From IMG/VR virus record IMGVR_UViG_3300007533_000007, positions 1 to 37,762 of that record: a DNA stretch of 37,762 nucleotides; one strand, written 5' to 3'. Source of the DNA: a virus. This document shows positions 3,587 through 37,762 of this stretch, piece after piece (within the stretch, counting starts at the first letter, position 1; each line of letters begins with the position of its first letter). The position numbers and the translations under genes were made by a program. The notes under the pieces were generated by a model. That model made no database searches, had not been told where the DNA came from, and saw nothing but the letters and a program-made list of their open reading frames with translations.

Positions 3587-3704
3587 TTGACATTTTGAAT
3601 GGATCATTCCTGAAAGTCGTGTGCCCTATCAGGGGCGATCCCCCAACAAATTAGCCTGAAGGCGAATGTGAGGCACACCACATTTTAGCTTTCAGGCTTT
3701 TTTA
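3587..3704 (+). ncRNA. Structured non-coding RNA with predicted pseudoknot and intrinsic terminator
   Basis: Four helices can be drawn on the plus strand. GAATG-GAT-CATTC (3597-3609) and GGGG-CGAT-CCCC (3632-3643) are small hairpins. An 11-bp stem pairs 3653-3663 (AGCCTGAAGGC) with 3688-3698 (GCTTTCAGGCT, one G-U), capped by a second stem AATGTG/CACATT (3665-3670 with 3679-3684). Its 8-nt loop AGGCACAC contains GGCACAC (3672-3678), the exact complement of upstream GTGTGCC (3619-3625), giving a 7-bp long-range pseudoknot. TTTTTT follows the main stem at 3697-3703, so the RNA would end near 3704. No open frame covers it. No known RNA family is recognised. GAATGGATCA at 3597-3606 resembles box B of the neighbouring array (8 of 10). 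Confidence 0.7.
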
Positions 3705-3718
3705 TTAGTCAGTGTGCA

Positions 3719-3826
3719 TAAGAAACCCAAAAAACTGAAACGAGTCAGTACGCTTAATAAACCCAAGATGCTAAAATGAATCACAATAAGTTAGAAACCC
3801 AAGTAGTTGAAATGAATCATAACTAA
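3719..3826 (+). repeat. 36-bp two-box repeat array, upstream block (3 units)
   Basis: Three contiguous units begin at 3719, 3755 and 3791, each exactly 36 bp: box A TAAGAAACCCA (11 bp), a variable 8-mer, box B AAATGAATCA (10 bp), a variable 7-mer. Variable blocks are AAAAACTG/GTACGCT, AGATGCTA/CAATAAG and AGTAGTTG/TAACTAA. The first unit is worn (box B AAACGAGTCA), and a fainter box B (TTATTAGTCA) overlaps the end of the RNA terminator. The last unit ends directly at the AAGGAG ribosome-binding site of the following gene. Confidence 0.95.
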
Positions 3827-3837
3827 AAGGAGTCAAT

Positions 3838-4779
3838 ATGTCTAAAGAAGCCCTTAAAACTGCGATCATAGAAAAACAAAATGGTGAATGTGCTCTGTCG
3901 GAAGCCCCGTTAAAGCCCGACCTCATGCTAGTTGATACCGACCGAATTCTACAAAAAAAGGACGGTGGTATCTATACGACCGAGAACACCCGTGTCGTTG
4001 ATCCTGTCGCTCACATGAAACGACACGGCAACTACAGGGACCGCGAGGAAGCATTGCACGAGTTGAAGGTAATCATGGACGGGAGAGAGAAAGTTCGCCA
4101 GCATGTCAATGCAACGGGCAACCGTATTTTAGCAATGGAACGGGGAACAGATGACCTTGACGTGAATACGATTGATTGGCTCAAAGAACAACAGGATGCA
4201 GCAAAAAAACGTTTGTCAAAGATAGACCGCAAGGTTAAAAAGCATCTGGAAAGAATGCCGCATGAAATCATTAATGCGGCCCTGGATGTGGATTCTGTAG
4301 GTCCGATTACAGTAGCTTATATGATGATCTATATTGACATAGAGAAAGCTCCCTACGTGTCAAGTATGTGGAAATATACCGGCCTTCACACATCATCGCA
4401 CCAACGATATAAGAAAGGGGAAACTTCCGGCGGGAACAAAACACTTCGGACCGCCCTTTATACGATGGCCGAATCGCAGATACGCGGACGCGGTGCTTAC
4501 CGTGATGTTTACGACCGTACAAAGGCGAAGCTTGAAGTCAGTGAAAAGATTACTAAGAGCCGAAATACGCAAGGTAATCTTATTGAATGCAAGTGGAAGG
4601 ACACCAAGCCTTCACACAGGCATGGAGCCGCTATACGGCAAATTATGAAGCATTTCCTTGCCGATTGGTGGATCGTACACCGTACGCTCGAAGGACTTGA
4701 TACTCCAAAACCTTACCCGATAGAAAAGTTAGGACATAAAAACTGGATTTATCCAGAGGAAAGAGGGTGGGAATATTAA
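3838..4779 (+). CDS. IS110-type transposase C-terminal (Tnp) domain protein lacking the DEDD domain
   Basis: 313 residues, with AAGGAG placed 7 bases before ATG. Residues about 142-215 match the IS116/IS110/IS902 transposase domain (Transposase_20): 'VDSVGPITVAYM' (helix-hairpin-helix), 'WKYTGLHTSS' and 'TSGGNKTLRTALY'; Ser186/187 sit where IS110 enzymes carry their nucleophilic serine. A coiled coil (about 110-140) precedes it. The RuvC-like DEDD domain of IS110 enzymes is absent. Instead residues 1-66 look like a worn HNH fold (C18, D33/D35, GG43-44, N50, H59, H63). The C-terminus (255-313) has 'SHRHGAAIRQIMKHFLADWW' and ends 'LGHKNWIYPEERGW'. Known IS110 enzymes recombine DNA with a bridge RNA. 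Here a structured RNA lies upstream and repeat arrays lie on both sides. Function is inferred. Confidence 0.75.
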   Translation: MSKEALKTAIIEKQNGECALSEAPLKPDLMLVDTDRILQKKDGGIYTTENTRVVDPVAHMKRHGNYRDREEALHELKVIMDGREKVRQHVNATGNRILAMERGTDDLDVNTIDWLKEQQDAAKKRLSKIDRKVKKHLERMPHEIINAALDVDSVGPITVAYMMIYIDIEKAPYVSSMWKYTGLHTSSHQRYKKGETSGGNKTLRTALYTMAESQIRGRGAYRDVYDRTKAKLEVSEKITKSRNTQGNLIECKWKDTKPSHRHGAAIRQIMKHFLADWWIVHRTLEGLDTPKPYPIEKLGHKNWIYPEERGWEY

Positions 4780-4789
4780 TCAACACTGG

Positions 4790-5132
4790 AAAGAAACCCA
4801 TAAAGTTGAAATGAATCACGTTCCTTAAGAAACCCATGAAGCAAAAATGAATCATGATAAAAAAGAAACCCAAGCGCCTAAAATGAATCACTTCTCCTAA
4901 GAAACCCAAAATGTTAAAATGAATCATGTGTGATAAGTAACCCACGACTTTGAAATGAATCATGACTCCCAAGAAACCCATATAGTTTAAATGAATCATC
5001 ACTCCCAAGAAACCCATGATAGGAAAATGAATCAGATGGTTTAAGAAACCCAATATGTTAAAATGAATCATTTTTTTTAAGAAACCCATATTATAAAAAT
5101 GAATCAGACCATTTGAGAAACCCAATATATCA
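4790..5132 (+). repeat. 36-bp two-box repeat array, downstream block (9 full units plus a worn end)
   Basis: Units start at 4790, 4826, 4862, 4898, 4934, 4970, 5006, 5042 and 5078, with a final half unit at 5114. The period is exactly 36 bp throughout. Box A is (T/C/A)AAGAAACCCA with single changes in a few units. Box B AAATGAATCA is identical in all nine. Variable 8-mers and 7-mers keep constant length; examples are TAAAGTTG/CGTTCCT, AGCGCCTA/CTTCTCC and ATATGTTA/TTTTTTT. The 8-mer tends to end GTTR. Some blocks look duplicated (AAATGTTA and ATATGTTA; TGACTCC and TCACTCC). The core of box B, TGAATCA, is a near-palindrome. The array ends about 40 bp before the next gene. Confidence 0.95.
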
Positions 5133-5172: not shown

Positions 5173-5622
5173 ATGAAATACCTGATAACCTTTCTACTAC
5201 TTCCGTCAGTTATTGCGGCACAATCCATTTCTGTAGCTCCTACTTCATTTAAGGCATGGGGTAAAACTGGATATTATTCATCTATTTCAGCATCCTATAA
5301 AAATATAGGCATTCACTATTTCCATCCGTACAAAACATTGTATTGGAAGAATGAAAATTATGAGGGAAATGGTCCTGAAACAACTCCTGCTTTTGCCATA
5401 TCATATACTCCTATAAACGTAGAGGATATACTGAGAGCTGGTGCTATTATTTTTGATAGGCCTTTTCCGATAAAGATTGGATCTCAAATTAATTTTAAAT
5501 TATCGGCTGGATATTCATTTGGAATAGTTCGAGTATCATATGTTCATATCAGTAATGGATTCGGTATTATGAATGATGTAAATCCTGGTATGGATATGAT
5601 GCAACTATCTCTCAACCTGTAA
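5173..5622 (+). CDS. Secreted PagL-like (lipid A 3-O-deacylase / acyloxyacyl hydrolase-like) outer-membrane protein 1
   Basis: 149 residues, starting at MKYLITFLLLPSVIAAQ, a clear signal peptide; the in-frame ATG at 5113 would spoil it. The mature part alternates as in a small beta-barrel. Near the end is 'YVHISNGFG' followed by 'VNPGMDMMQLSLNL', matching the H-x-S-N plus NPG pattern of PagL, whose His and Ser (here H125, S127) are catalytic and which removes an acyl chain from lipid A in the outer membrane. The expected acidic partner is not obvious. The next gene is a paralogue. A phage copy could alter host LPS during infection; this is inference. Confidence 0.5.
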   Translation: MKYLITFLLLPSVIAAQSISVAPTSFKAWGKTGYYSSISASYKNIGIHYFHPYKTLYWKNENYEGNGPETTPAFAISYTPINVEDILRAGAIIFDRPFPIKIGSQINFKLSAGYSFGIVRVSYVHISNGFGIMNDVNPGMDMMQLSLNL

Positions 5623-5716: not shown

Positions 5717-6151
5717 ATGAAACGTTTACTGATCATTCCATTGATTCTAATCACAACTACTGCAATATGCCAGACAGTTTCATTCGCTCCTTATTCGGCC
5801 AAATTATGGGGACAAACCCCACAAACAGCCACAATAAGTGCTGAATATGAAAACTTTGGTTTGCATATTTTTGCACCGAGGGGGCGCCATGTGAACGATC
5901 AAGGCAACGAAATGGAACTAAGTTTTGCTGCATCATATAAAAAGCCGATACTCCAAAAAGTATTAAAGGCTGGGGTTATGGTATTTAGTCGTCCATTCCC
6001 TACTGATTCTGATTATCAAGTCAATTTTATTATTGATGCCGGATATACTTTTAATGGTGTACGTCTTTCATACGTGCATATTTCCAATTTGGGACTCGGA
6101 AAATACAATACCGGGTTCGATACTTTTCAAGTTACATTTCCGCTTTTCTAA
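5717..6151 (+). CDS. Secreted PagL-like outer-membrane protein 2 (paralogue)
   Basis: 144 residues with a signal peptide (MKRLLIIPLILITTTAIC). It aligns along its length with the preceding protein: 'VSFAPYSAKLWGQT' with 'ISVAPTSFKAWGKT', 'YENFGLHIF' with 'YKNIGIHYF', 'SRPFP' with 'DRPFP', and 'LSYVHISNLGLG' with 'VSYVHISNGFG' (H121, S123, N124). The NPG motif is replaced by 'YNTGFDTFQV', so activity is less certain. It lies 94 bp after gene 1; that gap (5623-5716) shows no gene. A duplication within the plus-strand cassette is likely. Confidence 0.5.
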   Translation: MKRLLIIPLILITTTAICQTVSFAPYSAKLWGQTPQTATISAEYENFGLHIFAPRGRHVNDQGNEMELSFAASYKKPILQKVLKAGVMVFSRPFPTDSDYQVNFIIDAGYTFNGVRLSYVHISNLGLGKYNTGFDTFQVTFPLF

Positions 6152-8965: not shown

Positions 8966-9426
8966 GGTCCTTCAAGATAGCTTGGGATGCTTGTTATTTC
9001 ATTTAGGGAGACAAGCCGAAGCGACGGGACAAAAGTCCCGGTTGTATTGCGATAATTGGTCCCATAGGAGGAGGGTTCCAACACCACCTCGAAATTATCA
9101 GCTTTCGAGGCATCCGGGTAAAAAGTAATTGAATCTGCGTTATTGGTCACAAAAGCTACAATAATATCATTGAACAGGTTTCTCATGCGGGTTGACTGAG
9201 TAGATCCGTCATAGCGAAGCTCCACCGACGGCCGCAGCCCCCGCAGGTTCTGTCGGTACTTCCCGCTCAAAGCCTTATCAGCAAAAGATCCGGTGTAGAA
9301 TTCGGGGTCAATCTGAATATTGTAATCAGATACGTTAATCGTATATCGCTGTCCTGTGTTTTCGTCTCCATTTGAAAAGTTGGAGTTCTCAAAATGGACC
9401 GCCGTTATCTTTTTTGCAAGGCTCAT
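8962..9426 (-). CDS. Minor tail / distal tail protein B (paralogue of A)
   Basis: 154 residues, overlapping protein A by 4 bp and clearly similar to it in fold order. It starts MSLAKKITAVHFENSNFSNG and contains 'LSGKYRQNLRGLRPSVELRY'. A tandem duplication that has diverged is the simplest origin. Its likely location is the tail tip, between the tape-measure-associated protein and the fibre. Confidence 0.65.
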   Translation of the reverse strand: MSLAKKITAVHFENSNFSNGDENTGQRYTINVSDYNIQIDPEFYTGSFADKALSGKYRQNLRGLRPSVELRYDGSTQSTRMRNLFNDIIVAFVTNNADSITFYPDASKADNFEVVLEPSSYGTNYRNTTGTFVPSLRLVSLNEITSIPSYLEGP

Positions 9427-10634
9427 ATCTCGTATGCTATCAAATTAACTTTATCAGCCATAAAATCATATTCTATCTCCGAAGGCCTCCATGTCGTATT
9501 CTGAAGGGCGGCCGGGAAACTAGTGTCCAGCGTTATAGGCTCATAAGGTTTGATGGTCTCTATACCGTGTACAGTCAGGGTAATCGTCTTCGCACCATCA
9601 GCTCCGTAGGCTTTTCCATAGGCGCTTACACCGTCGGCTACTACGACCGAGGACAAAGTTGTACCAGCATCAGCGTAATAAAGACCTGATCCCTGCCAAT
9701 CAGCCCGGTTTATAGGAACAGGGGAAAAACTAACCGATAATGATTTTTTTGCCAACGTATTGAATTGCGTGGTAGATGTTTCCGACCAGGTACCTTGTGG
9801 CGGTGAATTAATATTCGAATTATCCAGCGTCACAGTTATATCAAAATATTCCTCAGCCCCTAAATTCAAATTTATACTCTCCACATCAGATTCCGACAGA
9901 GTCACGGCATTGGTCGTATCAAGGCGGTACTCGTAAAAGTTATACCCCAGCATAGATCCCAATATCCCCCCTTCAACCGCCGCCATCCAGAAAATGACAT
10001 CTTCAACTGTATAATTAGAGGCTTCTCCATTATTTACTGCTACATAGGTATTTGATGAGCTATGTGATACAAAATTGTCAGAAGCAATACTGAAAGTCCC
10101 AGAAGAATTAACTTCATCTGAAAATCCCCCCTCTATCAAATCACTAATATGGACACAGTCATATTGAGTACCTCCTCCTCCGTTTTGTTCTATTAAATAT
10201 GTTGTTGTTGCACCGGTAATAAAAACATCTATAGGAGTTCCATTGGTCCAGTCGGTCCTCGACTTTATTGTTACCTCTCTTGACTCGCGGTCGTAGGATA
10301 CATCCTTTTTCTTGAACTTGAACTCGTCGGTAAAAGAAGTTCCACTTTTGAAGGTATGTGATATTGTGACCGTCACCAAACTGCTTCCTATCGCCATCAT
10401 ATCCTCTATCATACTCGACCCGTCGTCCATCTTGTCGAAAGCGCTGAATGTAAACTCCCCCAAATCAAAGTAGACCGAATCGGCCGACTCCTCATCGGAC
10501 GCAACATCCCATGTTCCCTTCATGGATGAAATACTTGACACCTCAAACGAAGTCGTAGCGAAAGCAGCGTTTGTCATTGACAGCGACATATCACCGCTTC
10601 GCATCGAGAAAGTATTAGAACTAAGTGTACCCAT
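9423..10634 (-). CDS. Tail structural protein downstream of the tape measure
   Basis: 403 residues, rich in serine, threonine and beta structure, with little similarity that I can name. It starts MGTLSSNTFSMRSGDMSLSM. Segments such as 'SLVTVTISHTFKSGTSFTDE' and 'SREVTIKSRTDW' look like beta sandwiches. It comes immediately after the tape measure (1-bp overlap), where siphophages encode the distal tail or tail-hub protein. The specific hub role is inference. Confidence 0.65.
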   Translation of the reverse strand: MGTLSSNTFSMRSGDMSLSMTNAAFATTSFEVSSISSMKGTWDVASDEESADSVYFDLGEFTFSAFDKMDDGSSMIEDMMAIGSSLVTVTISHTFKSGTSFTDEFKFKKKDVSYDRESREVTIKSRTDWTNGTPIDVFITGATTTYLIEQNGGGGTQYDCVHISDLIEGGFSDEVNSSGTFSIASDNFVSHSSSNTYVAVNNGEASNYTVEDVIFWMAAVEGGILGSMLGYNFYEYRLDTTNAVTLSESDVESINLNLGAEEYFDITVTLDNSNINSPPQGTWSETSTTQFNTLAKKSLSVSFSPVPINRADWQGSGLYYADAGTTLSSVVVADGVSAYGKAYGADGAKTITLTVHGIETIKPYEPITLDTSFPAALQNTTWRPSEIEYDFMADKVNLIAYEI

Positions 10635-12232
10635 TATACGCTGATAAGGTCATTTTTAAGTTCTCGCTCCCCGTCCCGGACAAGAAGGGCCGCCCCTTTT
10701 CGATCTATTTTATTAGTCACGTTCACCTGTATGGCACGCCGGCGGGCAAACTGGTTTTCAAACATGCCCGCATTTAATCCTCTTCGGCGCTCCTGTTCGG
10801 CCAACGACAATGTTTCGGTTTTAAAGCCTTGCCTTGATCCTCCTCGCTGTCCGCCCCCCTGCCTGCCCCATCCACCGCCACTTCCTATATCTGTAGAGCG
10901 AATAGCTGCAAGGCGTGCCAGCCCTTGAGCAACCGCCACCGCCGCCGCAGCCGCCGCTCTCGCGGGCGCATCAGGGGTGGGAATGGCAAGCTGGGACTCG
11001 TAGGCTTTCTGCGCCGAGGCATACGTACTGACAAGGGTCTGAGCTATAGCAAGACCTTTTGACTGCCCAAAAGCTTGCCCTATAAGGTCGGATGCCGCCG
11101 AGATAGCATTGGTCATAATCTCCGATCTCTGTGTTTCTGCTATCTTTTGTATCTGGGTTTTTTTGTCTTCTTTTTCCTGTGTTATATGTACTTCCCTGTC
11201 GGCCAACTCCTGCAAAAACTCTGTCCGCGTCGTACCCAGCTCGGCAAACCGCGCCTCCTCACGCTGTCGCTCGGCTTCGGCTCCTGCACCAAACACACTC
11301 ACGCCGCCAACTTCGCCAGCTCGTCCTATGTCAATCGGACTTCCTCCACCCCCTCCACCCCCTCCCGTTAGCCTGTTTACATCCTCTTGAAGATCCCTTT
11401 TCCGTTGAAGTTCTTTGTTTATATCCTGATATTTCTTTCGAAGTATAGCAAGGTCGGAATCCAAGGATTCAGCATTCTGCTTCTGGCGATGTATAAAATT
11501 TAATTGCGCCCGAAGAAGCGACTTATTATCTCCATATTTTTCAAACGCCTGAGCTACAAGTCGTACTTCCTCTTCTGTTGTCAGATCGAATCGTTCTTGA
11601 AGTTTTTGCGTTCGTTCTATCTCCTCCTGTATGCGCTGTTTCTTAAACTCAAGCTGTTTTATACTAAATTCATCTTCACCAAAAAACTCCCGCTCTCCCA
11701 ATGCCGAAACCAAACTATCAAGCCGGTCAGTAAGGGTCTCAACCCCTTTATCAAGTTCATCTGTTGCCTTTTTAGCTCCAAACAGCTTTTCTCCGAACAG
11801 TGATATAGCAGTTATCGCAATGTTAATACCTAATATAATACCACCCGGTCCCAACAGGGAAGAACCCATCGCTTTCAATGCCCCAGTAAAACCCCCGGCC
11901 CTGTTGGACACGTTGGCGAACTGCTCACTCATAAAGGCAATGTTATTGCCGATAGCGCGAGACCCCTGTGCAAACCCAAACTGAAACTGTTGGGCGTCGT
12001 TGACAATATCGCCAAAGGAGAAAAGCGTCTGGTTGGCACCTGATATTGTACTACGCATTACACGGTTGGAACTGCTGACCTTCTCGGTAACTTCTTTTTG
12101 ACGGGCTAGCTCCTTGTTGACATTACGAACGCTCTTGACCATATCATTGGAGGCACGTTCGGCCTGGTTGGCCAGAATGGTAAACTCCTGTTTTTCGCTG
12201 TCAACACGTATATTTAGTCGGGCATCAGCCAT
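10634..12232 (-). CDS. Tape measure protein
   Basis: 532 residues. It is helical with a predicted coiled coil near the start (ERASNDMVKSVRNVNKELAR), a hydrophobic segment (SSLLGPGGIILGINIAITAI, about 130-150), more coiled coil (190-290), a glycine run, then an Ala-rich helix (APARAAAAAAVAVAQGLARL). This matches the layout of tape measure proteins, which set tail length and enter the host envelope. It follows the chaperone pair and overlaps its frame by 8 bp. The short length predicts a short siphovirus tail. Confidence 0.85.
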   Translation of the reverse strand: MADARLNIRVDSEKQEFTILANQAERASNDMVKSVRNVNKELARQKEVTEKVSSSNRVMRSTISGANQTLFSFGDIVNDAQQFQFGFAQGSRAIGNNIAFMSEQFANVSNRAGGFTGALKAMGSSLLGPGGIILGINIAITAISLFGEKLFGAKKATDELDKGVETLTDRLDSLVSALGEREFFGEDEFSIKQLEFKKQRIQEEIERTQKLQERFDLTTEEEVRLVAQAFEKYGDNKSLLRAQLNFIHRQKQNAESLDSDLAILRKKYQDINKELQRKRDLQEDVNRLTGGGGGGGGSPIDIGRAGEVGGVSVFGAGAEAERQREEARFAELGTTRTEFLQELADREVHITQEKEDKKTQIQKIAETQRSEIMTNAISAASDLIGQAFGQSKGLAIAQTLVSTYASAQKAYESQLAIPTPDAPARAAAAAAVAVAQGLARLAAIRSTDIGSGGGWGRQGGGQRGGSRQGFKTETLSLAEQERRRGLNAGMFENQFARRRAIQVNVTNKIDRKGAALLVRDGERELKNDLISV

Positions 12233-12485
12233 CTATCGGTGGATTTTCTGTTTTCTGTTTTGCCATCGCCGCCCGGTATATCTGGAACGGTGAGTAATTC
12301 TCATAAAACGACCTCGCCTTATCCAGATCCCACCCGGCCAGGTATTGGCACCAATACAACAACGGATCATCATAAACCCGCTGGTCCTCGCTCACATAAG
12401 CACCTACAAACACGTCAATAGGTACGTCCTGCAAGGAAAAAAGACGCTCGACCGCAGCACCTACATCGAGGCCTGCGGTCTCATA
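12225..12485 (-). CDS. Frameshift extension of the tail assembly chaperone (gpT-like)
   Basis: This frame stays open from within the end of the 100-residue chaperone gene to the tape measure start (87 codons) but has no convincing own start; the first candidate is a TTG at 12434. It encodes '..YETAGLDVGAAVERLFSL' followed by 'DPLLYWCQYLAGWDLDKARS'. A -1 slip at GGTTTTT (12491-12485) would join it to the upstream chaperone, giving the long G-T type fusion found before tape measure genes in most siphophages. The slippery site is not the classical GGGAAAG, so independent translation from TTG remains possible. Confidence 0.6.
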   Translation of the reverse strand, partial: YETAGLDVGAAVERLFSLQDVPIDVFVGAYVSEDQRVYDDPLLYWCQYLAGWDLDKARSFYENYSPFQIYRAAMAKQKTENPPIDG

Positions 12486-12763
12486 AAAACCTGCCTGAGG
12501 AAGTCGAACTGACCGGCCGGGAACTCATCTCTTGCAAACCATTCTACATCGGGCAGTCCTTCGTCAAACTCAAACATCACATCCGAAGCCTCGCGGTAAT
12601 ATTCGTACAAAGCCTGTGAGGCTTCTTCTTCGCCGGCGTCTTCGGTCTGTTGTTGCAGTTTCTCTCCAAGCTCGGCCATCTTTTGCAACCTGCCGGTAGT
12701 GCGCCATTTTAACTTTATGGGTTTGCCGTCAAAGGATGATTCGATGCGTTCGCCTAACTTCAT
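12461..12763 (-). CDS. Tail assembly chaperone (gpG-like)
   Basis: 100 residues, starting MKLGERIESSFDGKPIKLKW, acidic and helical, ending 'QVFMRPQASM'. It sits between the tail tube genes and the tape measure, where the short form of the tail assembly chaperone is normally encoded. It binds the tape measure during tail assembly but is not in the virion. Its 3' end carries the possible -1 slip site. Confidence 0.7.
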   Translation of the reverse strand: MKLGERIESSFDGKPIKLKWRTTGRLQKMAELGEKLQQQTEDAGEEEASQALYEYYREASDVMFEFDEGLPDVEWFARDEFPAGQFDFLRQVFMRPQASM

Positions 12764-13656
12764 CAGTATTTAGTATATGTGGTTTCGGTTCCGATTCTAA
12801 GGGAGGGGTCGCTTACCTCGTTGGTCACTGTCCCCGATGTAGCCTTAAGGGAAAGGCGGCAGACAACTTGAACGGTGTTTGCGGGCGTAGTCCCGGTCAC
12901 GATTTTGCGGCCTGTAGAGGAGAAAGTCGTGGTCTGCGATGATATCACACTGTCAGAGGAGTCGACAAATTCAAGCTCTATCTGTTCGGTCGTATAAGTC
13001 CCTGTTCGAGAGTCATTGTTGATGGCAAAGGTAATCTGTTCGCTTTCAAAGGGAAAATAGATAGCTCGCTCGAAATCTCTTTGAGTAGTATCGGCCTCTA
13101 ATGTCTGCGTTCCGGTCGCAAAGGTTGAGGTAGTAAACCCGGTTGCACTCCATCCGTCGGCTACTCCGCTTGAGTCGGCATCGCCCCAAACGTAGAGTCC
13201 AAGCCCATTGGCTCCTGCTTTAACGCCTCCGGAGTGGATTCCTGTAGACGGGTCAAAGCCGGGGGTCCCTCGCTTGGTGATCATTATGCCATGCGACTTC
13301 CGGTCGGAGTACTTATTAGCCTTTCCTATCCGCGCAAGCTCCGAGGTTGTCTGTTTATCGCCAAAATGAAGGAAACCGTCAATCAAAAGGCCCGCCACGT
13401 AAACCTCGGTCTCACTCGATACAAAGCTGTCAAGGTCGGTCTCCTCGGAAGAACTACCTACTAAAGTACGTATATCCAGCTCATGGTCCATCATGTCCAT
13501 GATTGTCTGCCCGTTCTCTGCTGTGACTGTCTGCTCGGACATGGAATACCCGAACGTGGCAGCCCCGTCAACGCCCTCGGTGACGTTGGAAAGGACCACC
13601 ACGTTGTCAGGCGAAGCGTCTTCAACGATAGCTATTTTTCTAAGGTGATTAATCAT
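12763..13656 (-). CDS. Major tail tube protein paralogue with C-terminal immunoglobulin-like domain
   Basis: 297 residues. The N-terminal 120 align with the 135-residue protein upstream ('TVTAENGQTIMDMMDHELDI' versus 'TTTVEDGQTIINAFDADVDI'; 'ETEVYVAGLLIDG' versus 'EAKFILIGATGVDD'). The remaining 170 residues are Ser/Thr-rich beta strands ('TTFSSTGRKIVTGTTPANTV') like the Ig-type or carbohydrate-binding decorations on tail tubes. Two tail-tube paralogues in tandem, one decorated, would allow a mixed tube. The role is inferred from position and content. Confidence 0.7.
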   Translation of the reverse strand: MINHLRKIAIVEDASPDNVVVLSNVTEGVDGAATFGYSMSEQTVTAENGQTIMDMMDHELDIRTLVGSSSEETDLDSFVSSETEVYVAGLLIDGFLHFGDKQTTSELARIGKANKYSDRKSHGIMITKRGTPGFDPSTGIHSGGVKAGANGLGLYVWGDADSSGVADGWSATGFTTSTFATGTQTLEADTTQRDFERAIYFPFESEQITFAINNDSRTGTYTTEQIELEFVDSSDSVISSQTTTFSSTGRKIVTGTTPANTVQVVCRLSLKATSGTVTNEVSDPSLRIGTETTYTKY

Positions 13657-14060
13657 GAGGTTGCGTATGGAGTAGAGGTGGCGCGTTGCGAGGCCCGGAA
13701 ACGAACGCCCTTTCTAAGAGCCGTATCGTAATCCTCAAAGGCCCTCATGCGCACATTGTCAACGGCAAGATCGTCAACACCCGTCGCACCGATAAGGATA
13801 AACTTGGCTTCCGATACAATGGTAGCATCCGTCTGCACGTTGGCGTCCGACAAGATATCCTCATCGTACAGAAGAATGTCTACATCGGCATCGAAGGCAT
13901 TTATGATAGTCTGTCCGTCCTCCACCGTTGTTGTTTGTTCCTCATGGTTGATGGTGATGTTATCGGCATCGGTAAGGGTATATTCGGTTCCCCCGCCTTT
14001 GGTAAATCCCGCCGCACCTACTTCGATCTTAATGTATATTTGTGGTTTGGTATTAGCCAT
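13653..14060 (-). CDS. Tail tube protein
   Basis: 135 residues, beta-rich and acidic, starting MANTKPQIYIKIEVGAAGFT. It is the short paralogue of the next gene and overlaps it by 4 bp. Located after the tail completion genes and before the chaperone and tape measure, which is the standard position of the tube protein. Confidence 0.65.
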   Translation of the reverse strand: MANTKPQIYIKIEVGAAGFTKGGGTEYTLTDADNITINHEEQTTTVEDGQTIINAFDADVDILLYDEDILSDANVQTDATIVSEAKFILIGATGVDDLAVDNVRMRAFEDYDTALRKGVRFRASQRATSTPYATS

Positions 14061-14253
14061 CGTCTTTGGGTTTTGTTATGTTGAAATACTTCTTGTTATC
14101 CTTGATGTAATCCCATGACAAATCGGTAAAATCTGCAAACGAACTGTCAAGGGTAAAACGGTACATTCTTCTCCCGTCCCGCTCATACGCCTGAGCTTCG
14201 GTCCCTTTCGGGATGTCGCGGAACCGCTGGTTTGTAGTTATAATGTAACTCAT
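14053..14253 (-). CDS. Small head-tail region protein, 66 residues
   Basis: The start is taken at ATG 14253 (MSYIITTNQRFRDIPKGTEA) because it overlaps the upstream stop as ATGA; a longer frame begins at 14304. The product is basic to neutral and ends with KKYFNITKPKDDG. It overlaps the tube protein start by 8 bp. No family recognised. Confidence 0.7.
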   Translation of the reverse strand: MSYIITTNQRFRDIPKGTEAQAYERDGRRMYRFTLDSSFADFTDLSWDYIKDNKKYFNITKPKDDG

Positions 14254-14666
14254 GCCTCGTTGTTGTATATTTCTGATATCTGGTACGTCTGGTTGTAAAC
14301 CCACCGTTTCAACTGCGGGTCATACCGCACAAAGTTCTCGCTTATAAGACGCATAAATTGGCTGTCAATCTGTTTCCCTGCCAAAGTGTTTTCGGTTGTG
14401 AGTAATGCACTTAGCACGCCCTGGTGCGTCCTGCGGTTACGGAACATATGCGTTATGGTGAAGTTTTGCCTGTTATGCTGGTATGTGCCTTGCGAGTTAA
14501 TATCTTCATCAATGTTTTTTCCAGTGTACGCTACCAAAATAACCTTTTCTTTTTTCGTATCAAACGAGGTGGGATCGTCCGGGTACGCCGCCACCTGCGC
14601 GTCACTATGCGCTGTTTTCAGGTCGTTTACGATTGAATCCTCACGCGCTTCTCTACTCGTTGCCAT
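14250..14666 (-). CDS. Tail terminator / Gp37-like minor protein
   Basis: 138 residues, starting MATSREAREDSIVNDLKTAH, with 'EKVILVAYTGKNIDED' and 'FTITHMFRNRRTHQGVLSAL', a pattern like the DUF1834/Gp37 phage proteins that cap tails. It lies between the gp10-like connector and the tube gene, the usual place of the tail terminator. Assignment is moderate. Confidence 0.55.
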   Translation of the reverse strand: MATSREAREDSIVNDLKTAHSDAQVAAYPDDPTSFDTKKEKVILVAYTGKNIDEDINSQGTYQHNRQNFTITHMFRNRRTHQGVLSALLTTENTLAGKQIDSQFMRLISENFVRYDPQLKRWVYNQTYQISEIYNNEA

Positions 14667-15144
14667 CTATTTGTGATTCAAGGTTACGGGCAAATACTTC
14701 GCTTATATCAAATTCCGGTTGTATGCCTAATCGGTTGCCGGGGTTTATTCCTGCCAGCACCCAATAGATACCTCCCAACCTGCGCGGGTTGCCTTCCAGA
14801 TCCGATGCGTACTCGGCAAGGTTAAAAAGGGTGCCTATCACATCTCCACCACTCTGCCGGGCATCTTCCTTCCCGTACTGATTTGAAAGGTTGCCCGTCA
14901 CATCAGCCCACCCGCCGGGATGCGGCTTTCGTAGCGGCAGGGCATGCGAATAATAGTAGTAAGGTCCCGAAGGCCCCGTTCGTATCTTCGCCCCTTGCTG
15001 GCTGCCGCGGGAATAATCAAAGCTCCTAAGGTAGTTGACAGACTCATCTAAGGTAGCCTGCAAGGCTAATACCATCGTCCCAGAAAGATCGTCTCCAAGT
15101 TGCCGGGCTTTCTCAGCCAGGTTGTCTTCTAATTGTATTTTCAT
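14653..15144 (-). CDS. Head-tail joining / neck protein (gp10-like)
   Basis: 163 residues, start taken at ATG 15144 (MKIQLEDNLAEKARQL), which overlaps the stop of the membrane protein upstream as ATGA. It has an N-terminal helix, 'IRTGPSGPYYYYSHALPLRK', 'TGNLSNQYG' and a basic tail region, as in HK97 gp10-type neck proteins where a 'tG.L..S/Q' segment follows the helix. Expected at the head-tail junction. Confidence 0.55.
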   Translation of the reverse strand: MKIQLEDNLAEKARQLGDDLSGTMVLALQATLDESVNYLRSFDYSRGSQQGAKIRTGPSGPYYYYSHALPLRKPHPGGWADVTGNLSNQYGKEDARQSGGDVIGTLFNLAEYASDLEGNPRRLGGIYWVLAGINPGNRLGIQPEFDISEVFARNLESQIDGNE

Positions 15145-33324: not shown

Positions 33325-33395
33325 TGCCGGAAGCAGGATTCGAACCTGCGCCTCCGGGTTATGAGGCCGGCGGCTTATCCGTTTGCCCTACCTGC
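33325..33395 (-). tRNA. tRNA-Met(CAT)-like gene with a poorly paired acceptor stem
   Basis: On the minus strand the 3' half is canonical: T arm GCAGG-TTCGAAT-CCTGC, anticodon loop CTCATAA (anticodon CAT), 4-bp anticodon stem CCGG/CCGG with one C-C mismatch, and D loop AAACGGATAA closed by GGC/GCC. The 3' acceptor strand TTCCGGC expects GCCGGAA at the 5' end, but GCAGGTA is present (5 of 7 pairs, two mismatches, tight spacing to the D arm). CCA is not encoded. It could be a worn tRNA, an atypical phage tRNA, or a tRNA mimic. Confidence 0.55.
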
Positions 33396-37352: not shown

Positions 37353-37762
37353 TGGGTATCTCCTCTGTAAATTCCTCCAGCTTTTCTATAATCATTTCAA
37401 AAGGAATAATATCACGGCATATTTCAGCCGACTTTTTAAGCAACTCCTTTTTAGCATAAGCATCAGCAGCATCAGCATCAGCAGCATCAGCATCAGCAGC
37501 ATCAGCAGCAGCAGCAGCAGCATAAGCAGCAGCAGCATAAGCAGCATCAATAGCAGCAGCATAAGCAGCAACAGCAGCAGCAGCAGAATCAGCAGCAGCA
37601 GCATCAGCAGCAGCAACAGCAGCAGCAGCATAAGCAGCATCAGCATCAACAGCAGCAGCAGCAGCAGCATCCAATTCCTGCCTTGTCGCCCGGCCCTCAG
37701 CGAAGGATTCGGCCACATCAAGGGCTTTTAGTGATCGCTCATCCTCCATTAGGTGCTGCACA
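37342..37762 (-). CDS. C-terminal part of alanine-repeat phage protein (begins at base 149)
   Basis: The frame is open at base 37762 and continues in frame from the partial gene at 1-149. The visible part begins 'VQHLMEDERSLKALDVAESF' and 'AEGRATRQELDAA', family features that precede the repeat. Then about 75 residues are Ala with Asp, Tyr, Val or Ser at short intervals (AAYAAAAVAAADAAAADS), written almost only with GCT codons, and a non-repeat tail ends IPNGK. In homologues the repeat likely forms a helix. Function is unknown. Confidence 0.85.
   Translation of the reverse strand, partial: VQHLMEDERSLKALDVAESFAEGRATRQELDAAAAAAVDADAAYAAAAVAAADAAAADSAAAAVAAYAAAIDAAYAAAAYAAAAAADAADADAADADAADAYAKKELLKKSAEICRDIIPFEMIIEKLEEFTEEIPNGK

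What the first reader, a model, noticed from the sequence alone, without database searches (positions are those of the whole stretch)
4790..5132. Array of strictly constant geometry with two variable blocks per unit
Twelve full units keep an exact 36-bp period, with boxes TAAGAAACCCA and AAATGAATCA nearly invariant while 8-nt and 7-nt blocks change. This is neither a CRISPR (spacers too short, two per unit) nor an ordinary iteron array (which would not keep alternating variable blocks). End units are worn, as in arrays that grow at one place. Some blocks are similar (AAATGTTA/ATATGTTA; TGACTCC/TCACTCC), hinting at unit duplication. Box centres fall about two helical turns apart, which also fits protein binding on one face of DNA.
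Basis: seen in the sequence. Interest (0 to 1): 0.82.

Follow-up and report, generated by a model that had tools for sequence, protein, structure and literature searches.

The report
Phage TIGR-TasH RNA-guided DNA cutter
The repeated stretch is the guide-RNA array of a recently described RNA-guided DNA-cutting system (TIGR-TasH) in a bacteriophage; it is a new example of a known kind, and its guides, taken with those of 24 related phage arrays, carry a statistical hint that natural targets lie inside protein-coding genes.

Summary
The array is real: exact 36-bp period, boxes and spacers as described, zero matches in shuffled sequence. It is a TIGR array. The neighbouring gene 3838-4779 (+) is tasH: NCBIfam 'TIGR-Tas system RNA-guided endonuclease' above its curated cut-off, phmmer E=3.6e-100 to the solved TasH, and a model with TM 0.91/0.93 to TasH-tigRNA-DNA. 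Correct register: edge AAATGAATCA, 8-nt spacer, loop AAGAAACCCA, 8-nt spacer. Twenty-nine IMG/VR records and Salicola phage CGphi29 carry the same arrangement with other spacers. Edge bases 4 and 7 covary as expected for pairing in the RNA. Two 92%-identical phages share 6 units and differ in the rest along the whole array, so growth is not at one end. No target was found in TIGR phages, including each phage's own genome, or in sister phages. New here: spacers of one unit fit one contiguous, in-frame coding sequence better than mispaired spacers, only in the published geometry. Verdict: new member of a known kind.

The parts
3838..4779 (+). tasH: 313 aa, N-terminal HNH nuclease domain, coiled coil and C-terminal Nop/Transposase_20-type RNA-binding domain
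   Evidence: NCBIfam NF052498 113.1 bits, cut-off 100; phmmer E=3.6e-100 to TasH 21kl/9w04; Foldseek TM 0.91/0.93 to 9w04; HNH residues D33, N50, H59, H63 kept in 23-24 of 24 relatives
3702..3819 (+). upstream TIGR array: 3 guide units (spacer A/B: GTGTGCAT/AAAAACTG, GTACGCTT/AGATGCTA, CAATAAGT/AGTAGTTG); starts with a truncated edge TTAGTCA, ends with a full edge just before the tasH ribosome-binding site
4773..5132 (+). downstream TIGR array: 10 guide units (36-bp steps, loop repeats at 4791, 4827, ... 5115); first edge (TTAATCA) overlaps the tasH stop codon, last edge decayed
4809..4818 (+). example edge repeat AAATGAATCA (tigRNA ends are expected in its middle; bases 4 and 7, and 3 and 8, can pair)
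   Evidence: covariation in 283 edge repeats from 25 arrays; processing site by analogy with PMC12045711
4827..4836 (+). example loop repeat AAGAAACCCA
3653..3704 (+). strong hairpin with a U run directly upstream of the first unit; terminator- or attenuator-like, role unknown
   Evidence: RNA fold z-score -4.29 for 3600-3720; no Rfam match

Best explanation
This is a phage-borne TIGR-TasH locus. The arrays on both sides of tasH are transcribed on the + strand (inferred), and the transcript is cut in the middle of each edge repeat into 36-nt tigRNAs: half edge, spacer A (8), loop, spacer B (8), half edge (by homology with the experimentally studied SpTIGR of Salicola phage CGphi29, whose array geometry is the same). 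A TasH dimer holds one tigRNA through its two box C/D-like repeats. Spacer A pairs with one DNA strand and spacer B with the other over 16 abutting base pairs, and the two HNH domains cut both strands (shown for SpTasH in PMC12045711, inferred here). The natural target is most likely foreign DNA, probably coding sequence of competing phages or other mobile elements; this last step is inference from codon-phase statistics and from the absence of self-targets.
For: Protein. Array geometry identical to SpTIGR (10+8+10+8). All 29 virus records found with tasH, and CGphi29, have such an array next to the gene. Truncated edges at array ends as published. Edge pair 4-7 covaries (CG 124, TA 117; mutual information 0.58 bits) while the same positions in the loop do not (0.03). 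No guide matches its own phage with 0-1 mismatch in the cutting geometry. Codon coherence of spacer pairs only with abutting half-sites: p=0.003, <0.00025 and 0.0015 with three codon models.
Against: No transcription, processing or cleavage was measured for this phage. No intrinsic terminator was detected after the downstream array and the last edge is decayed; a terminator-like hairpin lies before the first unit instead. No actual target was found.
Confidence: 0.95

Rival explanations
1. DNA-level protein-binding array (iterons, operator or partition site) in which the boxes are bound by a phage protein.
For: Regular box spacing; AT-rich intergenic DNA (GC 0.32).
Against: 18-bp spacing is 1.7 turns; spacers keep exact 8-nt length with unrelated sequence; edge bases covary as an RNA pair; a TasH gene is embedded and the same association recurs in 30 other records.
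Confidence: 0.02
2. IS110-type transposon with a bridge RNA: the gene is a transposase and the array a by-product.
For: Transposase_20 domain, Pfam E=4.9e-05; Foldseek matches to IS621.
Against: NCBIfam IS110 model 29.8 bits against a cut-off of 140, TIGR-Tas model 113.1 against 100; the N-terminus is HNH, not DEDD; best structures are TasH.
Confidence: 0.01
3. The system is TIGR-TasH but does not act on foreign DNA: its guides regulate or cut the phage's own or the host's genome (inheritance, lysogeny, takeover).
For: TasR in E. coli caused plasmid loss but no protection from phage (PMC12045711); host unknown, so host targets could not be tested.
Against: No guide of any of the TIGR phages matches its own genome at 0-1 mismatch in the cutting geometry.
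Confidence: 0.25

Closest known systems
TIGR-TasH of Salicola phage CGphi29 (SpTIGR; NC_020844); solved TasH (PDB 9w04, 21kl)
   Same: HNH + Nop protein, 52% identity over the full length; edge/8/loop/8 units of 36 bp; edge truncated at array ends
   Different: Window has units both before and after tasH and no detectable terminator; edge AAATGAATCA against AAGCGAGCCA, loop AAGAAACCCA against AAGACAACCA; no shared spacers
TIGR-TasR (PDB 9mty)
   Same: Nop domain and dual-spacer 36-nt units; model TM 0.54
   Different: RuvC nuclease instead of HNH; 9-nt spacers (PMC12045711)
IS110/IS621 bridge-RNA transposases
   Same: Shared Nop/Transposase_20 RNA-binding domain
   Different: DEDD domain and single bridge RNA; no array; fails the IS110 equivalog cut-off
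CRISPR arrays
   Same: Repeats with variable guides beside an RNA-guided nuclease
   Different: Two 8-nt spacers and two alternating repeats per unit; no adaptation genes seen

Membership tests
TIGR-Tas (TasH type) | Tas protein with Nop-like RNA-binding domain | tested here: met
   NCBIfam NF052498 113.1 bits above 100; Foldseek to TasH, TasR, IS621
TIGR-Tas (TasH type) | N-terminal HNH nuclease with intact catalytic residues | tested here: met
   Full-length match to solved TasH; D33, N50, H59, H63 present and conserved
TIGR-Tas (TasH type) | Adjacent array of two alternating 8-12-nt repeats with two short spacers per unit | tested here: met
   10+8+10+8, 13 units
TIGR-Tas (TasH type) | Arrays begin and end in truncated edge repeats | tested here: met
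   TTAGTCA at 3705 and TTAATCA at 4776 at the starts; decayed last edge after 5132. The upstream array ends in a full edge.
TIGR-Tas (TasH type) | Rho-independent terminator after the array (reported as typical, not as defining) | tested here: not met
   None found after 5132 on the + strand; a hairpin with a U run lies before the array instead
TIGR-Tas (TasH type) | Extra base pair in the edge repeat supported by covariation | tested here: met
   Positions 4-7 in edges, 24 of 25 arrays by consensus, about 4 joint switches on the tree but few on well-supported branches
TIGR-Tas (TasH type) | Processing to 36-nt tigRNA and tandem-spacer DNA cleavage | not testable with these tools
   needs RNA and biochemistry; shown for SpTasH in PMC12045711
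IS110 RNA-guided transposase | Score above IS110 equivalog cut-off; DEDD domain | tested here: not met
   29.8 bits against 140; HNH in place of DEDD
CRISPR | Single repeat with single spacers of about 25-40 nt | tested here: not met
   two repeats, two 8-nt spacers per unit

The most novel reading that the evidence does not exclude
Spacer pairs of TasH arrays are copied from, or selected to match, contiguous 16-bp stretches of protein-coding DNA (abutting half-sites, no gap) of other genomes, and units or half-units are replaced anywhere in the array. This would say where natural TIGR targets lie and how arrays turn over, two questions left open in the paper that described the systems.
Probability: 0.55. 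Interest if true: 0.65.

Novelty: new member of a known kind. Interest (0 to 1): 0.42.

Why it matters
It adds a well-preserved TasH locus from an uncultured phage and a comparative set of 31 virus records (about 275 distinct guide pairs). That set gives hints on two questions the founding paper leaves open: natural targets (coding DNA, abutting half-sites, not the phage itself) and array turnover (whole-unit replacement all along the array, with spacers of shared units conserved). If the coding-DNA signal holds, targets could be sought by searching phages and plasmids of the same host.

Tried and rejected
Iteron or operator array and IS110 transposon: rejected. Targets: 276 guide pairs against 1.9 Mb (both strands) of TIGR-phage DNA, two layouts, gaps 0-2: same counts as mispaired controls. 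Window guides against sister phages found by terminase: nothing. Exact 16-mer scans of IMG/VR for four window guides and one G006 guide gave 4-41 gap-free hits each. The larger counts come from heavily sampled gene families (a baseplate-like motif YEAKGT for TGAAGCAA/AAGGAACG; an exonuclease-like gene in antisense for AGTAGTTG/ACTTATTG), so I treat them as chance. No phage hit by the YEAKGT guide, in the part fetched, matched any other window guide at 0-1 mismatch. A shared codon phase of all 13 window guides looked striking but reaches only p=0.03 under the stricter control; not claimed. Loose sequence consensus in the B spacers of the window (p about 0.001, best of 42 slot tests): kept as unexplained. 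TasH in plasmids and in 84,980 species genomes (two pattern scans): none found. Host: not identified.

Full report
What is there. The window is a 37,762-base virus record of a tailed phage: terminase, portal, major head, tape-measure and DnaB-type helicase genes, almost all on the minus strand. Around 3.7-6.2 kb lies a plus-strand island: a first array of three units (3702-3819), a 313-codon gene (3838-4779), a second array of ten units (4773-5132) and two small predicted outer-membrane-like genes with sub-threshold PagL similarity. The two-box pattern of the finding has 12 matches in the window and none in 100 shuffles.

What it is. The gene product carries a Transposase_20 domain, but scores above the curated cut-off of the NCBIfam model 'TIGR-Tas system RNA-guided endonuclease' (113.1 against 100) and far below that for IS110 transposases (29.8 against 140). 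It matches the solved TasH protein at E=3.6e-100. An AlphaFold2 model from 20 sequences (mean pLDDT 91.7) superposes on TasH-tigRNA-DNA 9w04 with TM 0.91/0.93, then on TasR and IS621. The HNH residues D33, N50, H59 and H63 are kept in 23-24 of 24 relatives, the window included.

The array. TIGR arrays were described in 2025 (PMC12045711): alternating edge and loop repeats with two spacers, processed to 36-nt tigRNAs, units up- and/or downstream of the tas gene, truncated edges at the ends. Aligned by this scheme the window reads edge AAATGAATCA, 8 nt, loop AAGAAACCCA, 8 nt. The register is set by the ends: arrays start with the 3' half of the edge, here TTAGTCA at 3705-3711 and TTAATCA across the stop codon of tasH. 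In Salicola phage CGphi29, the TasH system studied in that paper, the same reading gives edge AAGCGAGCCA and loop AAGACAACCA with 8+8 spacers.

Relatives. Two IMG/VR scans gave 29 records with TasH; with CGphi29 and the window, 31 systems, 25 of them distinct. Every one has a 36-bp array beside tasH. No plasmid and no species-representative genome matched in the scans made.

RNA constraint. Over 283 edge repeats, bases 4 and 7 are CG in 124 and TA in 117, mutual information 0.58 bits; the loop shows 0.03. The two letters change together about four times on the TasH tree, though only one such contrast lies on well-supported branches. This is the extra edge pair described for TasR, seen here for TasH, and it argues for RNA rather than a DNA-binding site.

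Turnover. G006 and G007 are 92% identical phages. Of their 14 and 15 units, six are shared with at most one difference per spacer pair (2 differences in 96 spacer bases), in the same order, and the rest are unrelated, scattered along the array. One further unit keeps spacer A while spacer B differs at 4 of 8 bases. Loops of shared units are identical, edges drift. Same-slot near-duplicates are in excess across arrays. So units are replaced and duplicated at many places; growth at one end is not supported.

Targets. In the published geometry the target strand reads spacer B followed by the reverse complement of spacer A (deduced here from the 8-nt 3' overhangs and the C-5 rule). Direct searches found nothing above mispaired controls, and no guide matches its own phage at 0-1 mismatch. 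A different test was informative: under a codon model, real spacer pairs joined without gap are more coherent with one reading frame than pairs permuted within the same array (p=0.003 with each phage's own codons, <0.00025 pooled, 0.0015 with codons of phages outside the TIGR set). Gap 1 and gap 2 show no such excess at the 5% level and the reversed order shows the opposite; pairs taken across the edge instead of the loop show no excess. Without the window p=0.007. The effect is small, and although the layout was predicted beforehand by the paper, several layouts were tabulated in the first run. It suggests that natural targets are contiguous 16-bp sites in protein-coding DNA.

Assessment. Identity as TIGR-TasH is secure by protein and array tests. 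Processing, cleavage and biological role are inferred from SpTasH. The turnover and coding-frame results are not in the founding paper and are modestly supported.

Noticed in passing
L012/L037, record G024 (IMGVR_UViG_3300033149_002604), about 9400-14760: TIGR arrays are dispersed in several blocks around tasH; five blocks end in a truncated edge followed by a conserved element (AAGCGTTCCGAAGGTTGGCTTCAGC ... GCCAGCCTG) whose ends could pair as a hairpin, with the next array sometimes starting right after it.
   Followed up: partly
window 3730-3809 and 4801-5132 (B spacers): Spacer B of the 13 window units shares a loose positional consensus (about W-R-A-W-G-Y-T-R), unlikely by letter shuffles (p about 0.001, kept after removing near-duplicates); spacer A does not.
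   Followed up: partly
window 3653-3704: Strong hairpin followed by a U run directly before the first TIGR unit, on the strand of the array; transcription must start downstream of it or read through.
   Followed up: no
window 5173-5622 and 5717-6151: Two small proteins with signal-peptide-like starts and sub-threshold PagL similarity directly downstream of the array, low GC (0.35-0.38); possible outer-membrane cargo.
   Followed up: no
window 37453-37669: Long AGC-rich tandem repeat (15/9/24-bp periods) at the right end of the record.
   Followed up: no
window 33325-33395 (-): A tRNA gene in the phage.
   Followed up: no
records G006/G007 (loci L019, L020): Shared TIGR units differ at 2 of 96 spacer bases while flanking DNA differs by about 5-8%; spacers may be under purifying selection, weak statistics.
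   Followed up: partly
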